A program made the translations under genes and the position numbers. A DNA stretch of 64,000 bases from Liolophura sinensis. Its lineage: Eukaryota > Mollusca > Polyplacophora > Chitonida > Chitonidae. Of the stretch, positions 39,004 through 63,590 are shown one piece after another (the first letter of the stretch is position 1; the number at the start of each line of letters is the position of its first letter). The notes under the pieces were generated by a model. That model saw only the letters and a list, made by a program, of their open reading frames with translations, did no database searches and was not told where the DNA came from. Location of the stretch: assembly GCF_032854445.1 (NCBI RefSeq), contig NC_088299.1, positions 11,897,608-11,961,607 of the forward strand, written 5' to 3'.

Positions 39004-41391
39004 CTGCGAACAGAACAGTGCAAAGTCACCAAACAGCAAAAACAACAACAAAAAAGAAGCTATTTCACTTCACGTTTAACCTGTAATTATGGTAGTCAAG
39101 ACGGTTTCACGTGCTGTGTTTGTATGGTGTTCTGTTTGTACAATCAAAACGCACTTGTATCAACCTTCAAAACTTGATGCACCCTAAACTCAGTGTCGAG
39201 TTTCAAAAAGTCGAATTTTTTGCATTGAGTGTTTTGCACGTTAATAGTCCATTTAAATTAGACATCGTATTCCTTTAAGATGTTGTATCTATAATAAAAC
39301 TTGATGGAATCGACACTCATTGTTCTGTCTGCAAAGTCGACGTCAACTTTGAGTGTCGCGTTTTTACACCTTATATGCCCATTCACATCACACTGTCTGC
39401 TAACATAATACCGCAGAATATTCCAGTTAGACAATGGAGTCCCACCCAATTAACATTCACAATTTACACCGATCTGACATCTCTATCCTCTCTGCTGATA
39501 CATCTGTTGGCCTCCAAATTCCTCAACTGACACTCACCTGAATGGCCTGCTGATACAGCTGCTCACCTCTGAATTCCCACCTGACACTCACCTGAATGGC
39601 CTGCTGATACAGCTGCTCACCTCTGAATTCCCACCTGACACTCACCTGAATGGCCTGCTGATACAGCTGCTCACCTCTGAATTCCCCACCTGACACTCAC
39701 CTGAATGGCCTGCTGATACAGCTGCTCACCTCTGAATTCCCACCTGACACTCACCTGAATGGCCTGCTGATACAGCTGCTCACCTCTGAATTCCCCACCT
39801 CAAACTCACCTGAATGGCCTGCTGATACAGCTGCTCACCGCTCACTGGACACTCACCTGAATGACATGCTGATACAGCTGCTCACCTCTGAATTCCCCAC
39901 CTCAAACTCACCTGAATGGCATGCTGATAACACAGACATACTCAATCCCCTCAAAATCCCCCATCCTACCAACACACCCATGCACGTAACCCTGATCTGA
40001 ATCCAGCCATGCATCTGAGACTCAGATGAATGGCCTGCTGATACGGCTCCTCACACCTGAATTCCCCACCTGACACTCACCTGAATGGCCTGTTGATACA
40101 GCTCCTCACATCTGAATTCCCCACCTGATGCTCACCTGAATGGCCTGCTGACACAGCTGCTATCCTCTGAATTCCCCACCTCACACTTGCCAGGGTTATC
40201 TAACAATGGGGACATACTCAATCCCCTCCAAATCCCCTATCCCCACCAACACACCCACACAAGTAACCCTGGTCTGAATCCAGCCCTCCACCTGACACTC
40301 ACCTGAATGGCCTGCTGATACAGTTCCTCTGATTCCTTCCGTAGCTCCTCTAACGCCTTCTCCTGACTCAGAATCAGCCTACTTATGGCTTCGCACTCAT
40401 CCCCATACTGATGGTACTTGTAGCGCGTCCATTCCTTCTGCAGCAAAGCACGTCGTTCACTTTCCTCAAAAGTCAACACAGGTCTGTCCCTTTTCCGGAA
40501 TCTACATTGAAATGTTGTTATTTTAAGATGTTTTCGAATTATAATGAATTTACAAGGAATTCAGAATAGTCGCTAATTGGCTCATATTTGAGACAGATAG
40601 ATCTGGGCTATGCCCTGTTTGAGATAAATGTACATTAACTTCTCATCTCCACTGTCAGTCAATCAAGAATGATTCTGAATTTCACAAATGTAAAATGCTA
40701 AGATTCAGCCAACGTCCTGTGTGTTCTAGTGACTGAAAGATATACTTATTTATTTATTTGATTGGTGTTTAATGTGTATGCTGTCCTCGAGAATATTCCT
40801 CTTTTTTTATACAACAGCAGCCATCATTTTAGTGCTAGGAAACTGTTCAGGCCTAGGGGAAACCCAAGACCATCCACAGGTTGCTGGAAGACTTTCCCAT
40901 ATACGGCAAGAGAGGAAACCAACATGAGCTGGACTTGAACTCACAGTGACCGCATTGGTGAGAGGCTCTGAGGTCGTGCTGCGCTGACATACTAAACCCC
41001 CTTGGCCATGGAGGTCTCCTGATCCTAATATAGAGCCAATCCTGGAGAGAGCGCTCTGTCTCCATAATTCATGTATGTAAAACACTCTAAATCACTTAAG
41101 TCCGCAAACATGTTAACACAACCTCTTATTCAACAATTTACAGATTCTGAGATTTCTCTTCTAAACCAAAGAATAATAAAGAACACTGATTCTATAAAAG
41201 ATTTTGATAAAATAACATACTCCAATTCCTTTCGCAACTTAATATCTCCACTTATTTCATCAACTGGTTTCAGTTTCCTTGAAAATTTTTCGAGACGTCG
41301 TATCTGTTTTTCAATTCTCCTCTTTTTTTTCTGTTCTTTGGCAATAAGAAGCTGGGGATCCACCTTCTTTTTCTTTTTCATTGGGCTTGTC
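38893..41391 (-). CDS. MRPL40: mitochondrial ribosomal protein mL40 (MRPL40), N-terminal exon not found
   Basis: A component of the mitochondrial large ribosomal subunit. Three minus-strand exons join in phase: 41221-41391, 40303-40501 and 38893-39003 (stop TGA at 38893). Recognisable blocks are MKKKKKVDP, RRIEKQIRRLEKFSRKLKPV, RPVLTFEESERRALL, a coiled-coil-like Glu/Lys-rich helix ending ELYQQAIQ, and the conserved tail ATPPIEDYKSPDGEYKD. These align in order with human MRPL40 (206 residues) from about residue 50. About 159 residues are seen. The mitochondrial targeting N-terminus must lie in one or more exons between 41392 and 44201. Intron 40302-39004 is largely filled by a tandem array containing copies of the exon's own donor site. 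The gene is head to head with POLE. Confidence 0.93.
39537..40310. repeat. ~54-bp minisatellite containing the MRPL40 exon end and donor
   Basis: The motif ACCTGAATGGCCTGCTGATA (plus strand) recurs near 39537, 39589, 39643, 39699, 39752, 39808, 39855, 39910, 40024, 40079 and 40133, with the true exon end at 40301-40310. Read on the minus strand, each unit carries TATCAGCAGGCCATTCAG, the last exon codons, directly followed by GTGAGT. A larger ~125-bp block (39926-40050 and 40195-40340) is also duplicated. Confidence 0.93.
40303..40501 (-). CDS. MRPL40: MRPL40 penultimate exon
   Basis: It encodes FRKRDRPVLTFEESERRALL and a charged helix to LYQQAIQ. The acceptor is TTCAATGTAG and the donor GTGAGT. 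The last 21 nt plus the donor are the sequence copied in the downstream array. Confidence 0.95.
40745..41020 (-). mobile_element. SINE family A, full length, minus strand
   Basis: Tail (ATTTATTTATTTGATTGGTG), body and head (GCCATGGAGGTCTCC) are present. It lies in MRPL40's intron between the exons at 41221 and 40501. Confidence 0.9.
41221..41391 (-). CDS. MRPL40: MRPL40 internal exon with KKKKKVDP motif
   Basis: It encodes TSPMKKKKKVDP, RIEKQIRRLEKFSRKLKPVD and KLRKEL. The acceptor is CAATTTTCAG and the donor GTATGT. Two bases at the end complete a Glu codon with the next exon, reproducing the human order. Confidence 0.93.
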
Positions 41392-42455
41392 CTGAAAATT
41401 GCAAGTGGGTCTTTAAGAGTTTCATTTCAAACCTTTTTGTTCTTTCTGTGCAATAATGTGAAGAAAACAATATCAAAATTGTTAACTTTCAATCAATATA
41501 GGGTTCACCACACTACTGCTGATATACTAGATATGTGGCAGTGAGCTTTAATCATTCATTAAAGGGAGTAGATGAAAAGATAAAGACAATTTAGTTTTGC
41601 AAGAAATAATGGAGAAATTGAAGACTTTTATACATGTCTACATGCACATGTTTAATAGCGGAGTGATGTAACTCTCAAATCCTTATGGTGGAATACAGCC
41701 CCAAATGTGTTCGAATGACAGTAAGGAACATTTACCTCTTCCACAGATATTTAAAATTGAGTGGTCAACAAAATGAATTAACCTGCTCTGAGTCTTGCTG
41801 AATCAAAAATGATCCATGACAACGATACAAATTCATGAAATATATACATTTTCAGACACTACCCCCACTGTGGCAGCCATCTTGTTTTGATAGTCCTTAC
41901 AAGTCACATTATCGATGTGAGTGCTGAAAAAATATTCCAGTAACACTGGGCAAGTCTAGTCGTTCATTTGGCTGTTTCCCACCCCCTGACGTCAGATGCT
42001 TCTTGGCCGTTCTCGCAAGTGATTGAAATGGTGACCGACAGTTTACGGTCACAGGGGGCATAGTGTCTGAAATGTATTTACTTTGTGAATTTGGGCAAGA
42101 TGTTGACCACTTGGTTGATATCGATTTATCCCAGTAAACTTTTAATGCACATGTGAAGATGAAGTACATGACCTTACGGTGATTCTGACATATTTGAGGC
42201 TGTAGTTCACTGTAACTCTCGCGACAATTTGTGTTGCTCAATTTAAGAGTTAGGCCACTCCAATACTAGTCTAGGCTCACTTATACAAATATTCCACTGT
42301 AACAAGTGGTAAAATTTCTCACCATAGTACAGATGATGCTTGAAAAGACAAAGGACCACAGTTTGTGTGAACCTTTCGAACACCTTGGACGCAAACTCCT
42401 GTCAACCTCAACCTGTTGAAATAATTCAACAAAAATGCACACATATATTTACCTG

Positions 42456-62657: not shown

Positions 62658-63590
62658 GTGAGTACTCTGCCCTCTGGATGTAGGAGCCATGTACCCCAAT
62701 ATCATCCTGACTAACAGACTACAGGTGAGCACTCTGCCGTCTGGATGTAGGAGGCATGCACCCCAATATCATCCTGACTAACAGACTACAGGTGAGTACT
62801 CTGCCGTCTGGATGTAGGAGCCATGTACCCCAATATCATCCTGACTAACAGACTACAGGTGAGTACTCTGCCGTCTGGATGTAGGAGGCATGTACCCCAA
62901 TATCATCCTGACTAACAGACTACAGGTGAGTACTCTGCCGTCTGAATGTAGGAGCCATGTACCCCAATATCATCCTGACTAACAGACTGCAGGTGAGTAC
63001 TCTGCCGTCTGGATGTAGAAGTCATGTACCCCAATATCATCTTCACTTACAGACTACAGGTGAGAACTCTGTTATCTGCCATTTGGATGTAGGAGCCATG
63101 TACCCCAATATCATCCTCACTAACAGGTTACATTTGAGACCTCTGTTATCTGCCATTTGGATGTAGGAGCCATATACCCCAATATCACTCTCACTAACAG
63201 GTTACAGGTGAGAACTCTGTTATCTGCCATTTGGATGTAGGGGCCATGTACCCCAATATCATCCTCACTAACAGGTTACAGGTGAGAACTCTGTTATCTG
63301 CCATTTGGATGTAGGAGCCATATACCCCAATATCACTCTCACTAACAGGTTACAGGTGAGAACTCTGTTATCTGCCATTTTGATGTAGGAGCCATATACC
63401 CCAATATCACTCTCACTAACAGGTTACAGGTGAGAACTCTGTTATCTGCCATTTGGATGTAGGAGCCATATACCCCAATATCATCCTCACTAACAGGTTA
63501 CATGTGAGAACTCTGTTATCTGCCATCTGGATGTAGGAGCCATATACCCCAATATCACCCTTACAAACAGTCAACAGGTGAGAACTCTGA
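62596..63590. repeat. 67/74-bp minisatellite containing POLE exon 17's end (motif A) and donor
   Basis: The exon piece beginning TGGATGTAGGAGCCATGTAC and ending in ACAG before GTGAG recurs with starts near 62674, 62741, 62808, 62875, 62942 and 63009 (67-bp spacing). It continues near 63083, 63157, 63231, 63305, 63379, 63453 and 63527 (74-bp spacing). The later units keep a longer exon-like piece (TTATCTGCCATTTGG, compare exon ATCTACCATCTGG). Thirteen copies follow the true exon end at 62657. Confidence 0.97.

What the first reader, a model, noticed from the sequence alone, without database searches (positions are those of the whole stretch)
39537..63590. Four minisatellites in two neighbouring genes each duplicate an exon-intron boundary
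Seen directly: the arrays at 39537-40310 (MRPL40 donor), 57930-58650 (POLE exon 12 acceptor), 59910-60590 (POLE exon 13 donor) and 62596-63590 (POLE exon 17 donor) all have units that contain the exon edge (12 to ~51 nt) plus the adjoining splice site. The unit sequences, lengths (54, ~78, 70, 67/74 bp) and polarity differ, so these are independent events. Four in ~24 kb is unlikely to be chance, since junctions are a tiny part of the sequence. It suggests a process that starts tandem duplication at splice junctions (for example via R-loops, splice-site-like GT/AG microhomology or intron gain/loss intermediates), or selection for arrays of decoy splice sites. The mechanism is inference.
Basis: partly seen in the sequence, partly recalled or inferred. 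Interest (0 to 1): 0.9.

Follow-up and report, generated by a model that had tools for sequence, protein, structure and literature searches.

The report
Chiton minisatellites duplicating splice sites
In a chiton genome rich in short tandem repeats, many repeats sit across the edge of an exon and copy its splice site many times over; this is real, but in the genes sampled it happens not much more often than random placement predicts, except perhaps at exon ends, and similar repeats are already known in lancelets and humans.

Summary
Observation confirmed: the four arrays are present, each unit carries a real exon edge with its splice site, and the units are unrelated. The genome is the published Liolophura sinensis assembly (matching scaffold count and lengths).

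"Unlikely to be chance" is only partly upheld. In 14 genes outside the window (counting the rest of POLE), 12 of 60 arrays span a junction, against 6.65 expected from uniform placement (P=0.026) or 8.1 with the arrays' GC preference (P=0.10); without POLE, 8 of 47 against 5.3 (P=0.15). What remains is a donor bias noticed afterwards: 10 donors to 2 acceptors, 8 to 0 outside POLE; donors 10 against 3.3-4.1 expected (P=0.001-0.006).

Among copies the splice core is no better conserved than its flanks, so decoy selection is not supported. In 12 of 13 donor arrays, using the second donor would shift the frame or reach a stop, so the first donor is probably used (inferred; no RNA). Lancelet "mirages" are the same kind of structure. 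Best reading: ordinary minisatellite turnover whose seeds often include exon edges; a donor-targeted process is not excluded.

The parts
39492..40187 (-). 54/55-bp minisatellite duplicating the MRPL40 exon end and donor; 11 junction-bearing copies, 10 with GT
   Evidence: TRF (two pieces, merged); junction match 36/36; copies
40303..40501 (-). MRPL40 exon whose donor (between 40302 and 40303) is the source of the array
   Evidence: spliced alignment (4500-4698 of window 36001-45000 reversed)
57938..58646 (+). 78-bp minisatellite duplicating a POLE acceptor plus 17 exon nt; 8 extra copies, all with AG
   Evidence: TRF (105/107)
58630..58690 (+). POLE exon (model exon 11) with the duplicated acceptor
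   Evidence: spliced alignment
59850..59921 (+). POLE exon (model exon 12) with the duplicated donor
   Evidence: spliced alignment
59957..60584 (+). 70-bp minisatellite carrying 12 exon nt and the donor; 9 extra copies, all with GT; unit chimeric
   Evidence: TRF (46/48)
62529..62657 (+). POLE exon (model exon 16) with the duplicated donor
   Evidence: spliced alignment; part of the translation that matches human POLE structures
62603..63589 (+). 67/74-bp minisatellite carrying 55 exon nt and the donor; 13 extra copies, 12 with GT
   Evidence: TRF (65/67)
52426..54025 (+). 33-bp minisatellite (48 copies) in a POLE intron, 36 nt short of the acceptor at 54062; does not span the junction
   Evidence: TRF
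46188..46741 (+). 24/26-bp arrays in a POLE intron, not spanning a junction
   Evidence: TRF

Best explanation
These are ordinary intragenic minisatellites. The chiton genome makes and turns over tandem arrays at high density (57 of 312 introns in the modelled genes hold one). Seeds of about 35-130 bp fall across an exon edge roughly in proportion to how much of the gene lies within one unit of a junction, helped by a mild preference for GC-rich seeds. A junction-spanning array is tolerated because the true exon keeps its own splice site at the array's end; for donor arrays the first donor is used and every later copy is intron. The copies then drift and are homogenised like any minisatellite. 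Shown: the anatomy, the near-random rate in this sample, and equal conservation of splice core and flanks. Inferred: use of the exon-proximal site, and neutrality in the animal.
For: Rate: 12 of 60 arrays outside the window against 6.65 (uniform) or 8.13 (GC-weighted) expected; third sample alone 2 of 14 against 2.18, CLTC+PRPF8 2 of 12 against 1.17. Density: 57 of 312 introns hold arrays, 15.6% of intron bases, window genes included. GC preference of non-spanning arrays b=5.0 (2.25-7.5); unit GC 0.419 against 0.369 for intronic placements. Copies: consensus identity 92.8% in the splice core, 92.6% exon side, 91.8% intron side (15 of the 16 arrays); 129 of 154 extra copies keep GT/AG, and it was lost in 11 of 23 (CCT6), 6 of 9 (SNRNP200) and 4 of 9 (POLE exon 41) copies. 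Non-spanning units of the first two samples and the window carry no clear excess of sense donor-like sites (21 sense-higher, 17 antisense-higher). Second-donor use would reach a stop (9) or shift the frame (3) in 12 of 13 donor arrays.
Against: Donors exceed expectation: 10 against 3.32 (P=0.0014), 4.12 with GC weighting (P=0.006), 4.44 at the upper limit of that weighting (P=0.011); outside POLE 8:0 donors to acceptors. Long units are over-represented: 80 bp or more, 4 of 6 against 1.47 (P=0.033); all arrays with the window included, 16 of 66 against 7.28 (P=0.0014). The first blind set alone gave 8 of 32 against 3.21 (P=0.0098). POLE is rich: 7 of the 18 arrays in its model span a junction.
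Confidence: 0.68

Rival explanations
1. Tandem duplication is seeded preferentially at 5' splice sites, for example by transcription-linked DNA breakage or template switching near exon ends, so donor edges are over-represented among array units.
For: Outside the window 10 donor to 2 acceptor arrays (P=0.039); donors 10 against 3.3-4.1 expected (P=0.001-0.006); outside POLE 8:0 (P=0.008) and 8 donors against 2.66 (P=0.004); four further arrays start 0-3 nt inside a donor without exon sequence.
Against: The split was made after seeing the data. Acceptor arrays may be purged (2 against 3.3-4.0, not significant). Donors with arrays are not stronger than others (score 5.04 against 4.29, P=0.41). 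Non-spanning units show no GC skew (22 positive, 21 negative of 48). Smaller repeats show no donor bias (119 repeats, 1 spanning, an acceptor). In the 13 POLE arrays downstream of the window donors and acceptors are 2:2.
Confidence: 0.2
2. Arrays of decoy splice sites are kept by selection, for instance to slow or regulate splicing.
For: Most extra copies (129 of 154) still have GT or AG.
Against: The splice core is no better conserved than the flanks (92.8, 92.6, 91.8%), and three arrays lost the dinucleotide in 11 of 23, 6 of 9 and 4 of 9 copies. Using a second donor would break the frame or reach a stop in 12 of 13 cases.
Confidence: 0.03
3. The arrays are traces of intron gain by tandem duplication of an AG/GT exon segment (Rogers model).
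For: Some junctions carry AG|GT (POLE exon 11 acceptor, POLE exon 12 and 16 donors), and about 60% of the intron after POLE exon 12 is array.
Against: The units include intron sequence, so the intron came first; the four introns keep roughly 400-1,500 non-array bases. Human POLE V411L is found by sequencing exons 9 and 13 (passage of PMC6436745), consistent with the array-bearing intron before residue 409 being old; no human intron position was tested here.
Confidence: 0.04
4. Assembly artefact.
For: No reads could be inspected.
Against: The source assembly is HiFi with 8,347-bp mean reads at 14X (passages of PMC11068029), longer than these arrays; copies differ in ordered families (67- then 74-bp units in POLE exon 16).
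Confidence: 0.03

Closest known systems
'Mirages': minisatellite-like tandem duplications of exon-intron boundaries in lancelet genes (Adh3, globins BflGb6 and BflGb9, troponin C, PGBD5)
   Same: Tandem units of tens to 160 bp carrying an exon edge and splice site; 5' and 3' boundaries both affected; many but not all copies keep AG/GT (passages of PMC3087553; PMC3902484).
   Different: Here in a mollusc, in several conserved housekeeping genes, measured against a placement null, with a donor bias. Normal splicing and somatic instability, reported for lancelets, were not tested here.
Variable minisatellites at exon-intron boundaries in human genes within segmental duplications
   Same: Tandem repeats of about 30 bp that can lie at an exon-intron boundary (passages of PMC2812944).
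   Different: The human cases are recent expansions that lengthen exons or are said to form novel introns; here the arrays lie in introns of conserved single genes and the exon is inferred to be unchanged.
Intron gain by tandem genomic duplication of AGGT segments
   Same: Duplicated AG/GT-containing segments.
   Different: There the duplicated exon segment makes the intron (passages of PMC3443670); here intron sequence is already part of the unit.
Intronic minisatellites (earthworm metallothionein intron 1, for example)
   Same: Intronic arrays whose length differs between gene copies (passages of PMC12783039); here CRAT paralogs share 33- and 42-bp arrays, the 33-bp one of very different length.
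   Different: In the passages seen the earthworm arrays are not described as carrying an exon edge.

Membership tests
Lancelet-type 'mirage' | Tandem units containing an exon-intron boundary | tested here: met
   4 in the window, 12 of 60 arrays outside it
Lancelet-type 'mirage' | Both 5' and 3' exon boundaries can be duplicated | tested here: met
   13 donors and 3 acceptors in all (tested)
Lancelet-type 'mirage' | Many, not all, copies keep AG/GT | tested here: met
   129 of 154 extra copies
Lancelet-type 'mirage' | Splicing of the mRNA is undisturbed | not testable with these tools
   no RNA data; 12 of 13 second donors would break the frame or reach a stop
Lancelet-type 'mirage' | Length instability between alleles or cells | not testable with these tools
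   single assembly; no second haplotype seen for the two arrays searched
Intron gain by tandem duplication | Unit is exon sequence and the intron lies between two copies | tested here: not met
   units match 12-90 nt of intron next to the junction (90 was the length compared)
Selected decoy splice-site array | Splice core conserved above flanking unit sequence | tested here: not met
   92.8% against 92.6% and 91.8%

The most novel reading that the evidence does not exclude
In chitons, and perhaps in lancelets, minisatellite birth is targeted to 5' splice sites by a transcription- or splicing-linked DNA lesion, so that donors are duplicated two to three times more often than GC-matched intron sequence while acceptors are not.
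Probability: 0.17. Interest if true: 0.75.

Novelty: new member of a known kind. Interest (0 to 1): 0.4.

Why it matters
It shows that a structure reported from a few lancelet genes is common in the sampled genes of a mollusc, gives a rate for it (12 of 60 genic arrays) and a null to judge it by, and shows donors repeated up to 25 times inside essential genes such as POLE, XPO1, PRPF8 and the CCTs. If the donor bias holds genome-wide, it would point to a mutational process tied to transcription or splicing.

Tried and rejected
Decoy selection: not supported. Donor-like motif as the driver of non-spanning arrays: 21 sense-higher, 17 antisense-higher (window and first two samples only). R-loop-like G skew: absent in the 48 non-spanning units; the 12 spanning units lean G (8 positive, 3 negative, mean 0.101, P=0.044), which the donor sequence itself could give. 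Stronger donors attract arrays: no (P=0.41). Smaller repeats as early stages: 119 found, 1 spanning. A dispersed repeat as the source: the two arrays searched gave one place each. tRNA genes in the window by ARAGORN: none. Pfam on 10 of the 284 listed window ORFs: two weak matches, none over its cut-off. Sec1 family search: located, not used.

Literature: seven searches on this. Of their listings I opened passages of PMC3087553, PMC3902484, PMC12783039, PMC3443670 and PMC2812944; the rest I saw as listings only. Boundary-spanning arrays were described in the two lancelet papers and, for human paralogs, in PMC2812944. The primary Adh paper and a paper on human introns from tandem arrays were not held. 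I make no claim that none is reported in molluscs.

Rows dropped before counts: arrays outside a gene model (POLE-segment 15-187, which is part of the MRPL40 array; CCT3 8782-9101; CPT1 1-266); CRATb (3 arrays, paralog of CRATa; with it the second set is 2 of 17 against 1.35); a spurious mini-intron in POLE (model exons 23/24 merged) and POLE model exon 48; CRATa exon 14; CPT1 exon 9 and part of its first exon; CPT2 exon 13; doubtful middle exons of CRATb. Not fetched: three of the seven loci of the CPT family search and two long single-frame CCT-family matches. End exons of CCT1 (one stop in the model), CCT8 and CCT2 look doubtful and were left in. The overlap tally missed two window arrays; the unit-match rule replaced it. 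One acceptor array with 7 exon nt (SNRNP200 13765-13876) fell just under the 8-nt rule. The sample was enlarged twice after seeing earlier results, so the P values are not those of one fixed test.

Full report
Setting. The window is C5:11897608-11961607 of a genome held as 609,464,459 bases in 632 contigs. Its contig lengths (C1 96,433,062; C5 19,479,325) equal the longest sequence and scaffold 13 of the assembly in PMC11068029, which gives 632 scaffolds and 609,495,693 bases in all (passages seen; the totals differ by about 31 kb). It was published as Liolophura japonica and corrected to L. sinensis (whole text of PMC12441733). It was made from HiFi reads of 8,347 bp on average.

Observation. 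The four arrays are there. I wrote a spliced protein-to-DNA aligner and modelled MRPL40 (5 exons) and POLE (48 exons, no stop; 46 kept) against human proteins recalled from memory. The translation of three window exons matches human POLE structures end to end. Each array's unit matches a junction across the splice site (36/36, 105/107, 46/48, 65/67 nt).

Blind test. Genes were chosen by family or name without having seen their arrays: POLE downstream of the window and nine CCT/HSP60 genes, then CLTC, PRPF8 and two CRAT paralogs, then SNRNP200, XPO1, CPT1 and CPT2. The later sets were added after the earlier results were known, and POLE is also the discovery gene. Arrays were TRF hits with period 20 or more and length 100 or more, merged. 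An array counts as spanning if its unit matches a junction of its gene with at least 8 exon nt, 6 intron nt, 20 nt in all and 85% identity. Matches to junctions of other genes: 0 of 13,872, 0 of 9,532 and 0 of 7,956. The null places a unit of the same length uniformly in the gene with arrays collapsed, excluding placements inside or over a whole exon.

Result. Window: 4 of 6, 0.63 expected, P=0.001. First blind set: 8 of 32, 3.21 expected, P=0.0098 (POLE part 4 of 13 against 1.32, P=0.032; CCT/HSP60 4 of 19 against 1.89, P=0.11). Second, CRATb left out: 2 of 14, 1.25 expected, P=0.36. Third: 2 of 14, 2.18 expected, P=0.67. All blind: 12 of 60, 6.65 expected, P=0.026; without POLE 8 of 47, 5.32 expected, P=0.15; window included 16 of 66, 7.28 expected, P=0.0014. 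By unit length, blind: 20-34 bp 0 of 17 (0.70), 35-49 bp 3 of 18 (1.49), 50-79 bp 5 of 19 (2.99), 80 bp and more 4 of 6 (1.47, P=0.033). Non-spanning arrays prefer GC-rich seeds; with that weight the expectation rises to 8.13 and P to 0.10. So junction seeding in general is weakly supported at best, and the excess shrank as the sample grew.

Donor bias. Of the 12, 10 are donors and 2 acceptors (P=0.039); the 8 outside POLE are all donors (P=0.008). Donors are above the uniform (3.32, P=0.0014) and GC-weighted (4.12, P=0.006) expectation; acceptors are not. I split by type after seeing the data, so this needs an independent test. Selection against acceptor arrays, where the right site is the last of many, would explain few acceptors but not many donors.

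Copies. Of 154 extra copies found in 16 arrays, 129 keep GT or AG. The splice core is as conserved as its flanks (92.8, 92.6, 91.8%; 15 arrays with at least three extra copies). Copies were found by likeness to a 24-nt core, so very decayed ones are missed. Reading on to the second donor meets a stop in 9 of 13 donor arrays and shifts the frame in 3 more; only CCT3 exon 10 (66-bp unit) stays open and in frame. The plain inference is that the exon-proximal donor is used and the rest is intron; [quoted passage not shown] No RNA was available here.

Comparison. Lancelet 'mirages' share the three features that could be tested; two could not. Minisatellites at exon-intron boundaries are also described in human paralogs (PMC2812944, passages). 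The tandem-duplication route to new introns differs because intron sequence is already inside the unit (PMC3443670, passages). Human POLE V411L was found by sequencing exons 9 and 13 (PMC6436745, passages); in the chiton model the exon with the duplicated acceptor starts at residue 409 of my recalled human sequence, which fits an old intron but does not prove it.

Limits. One assembly; gene models from recalled human proteins, some end exons doubtful; arrays in one gene are not fully independent; 60 arrays give little power.

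Noticed in passing
window 58995-59264: A stretch of about 270 bp in a POLE intron matches 39 other scored places in the genome at 89-93% identity (only 40 candidates scored); it looks like a tRNA-derived SINE (label recalled, not tested; ARAGORN calls no tRNA).
   Followed up: partly
window 52426-54025 and 56313-56333: The 33-bp array's 21-nt core recurs once, perfectly, 2.3 kb away in the next POLE intron.
   Followed up: no
window 39852-40329: The MRPL40 array contains a larger duplication of about 200 bp, 166/203 identical.
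   Followed up: no
window 59957-60584: The unit is chimeric: exon end, intron start and about 22 nt that I see in neither flank (by eye).
   Followed up: no
L022-L023 (joined, 14061-15454) and L024-L025 (joined, 13851-14164): Neighbouring CRAT paralogs share a 33-bp intronic array, 1394 bp long in one and 314 bp in the other.
   Followed up: partly
L002 8355-8644: By eye, an 81-bp intronic array carries a piece resembling the POLE exon that begins about 500 nt further on, without its junction.
   Followed up: no
CCT6 (L013 2289), POLE (L003 4284), PRPF8 oriented 5039 and 34300: Four arrays begin 0-3 nt inside a donor without exon sequence.
   Followed up: partly
window 5858-6563: An 89-bp minisatellite of 7.9 copies in a stretch I did not annotate.
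   Followed up: no
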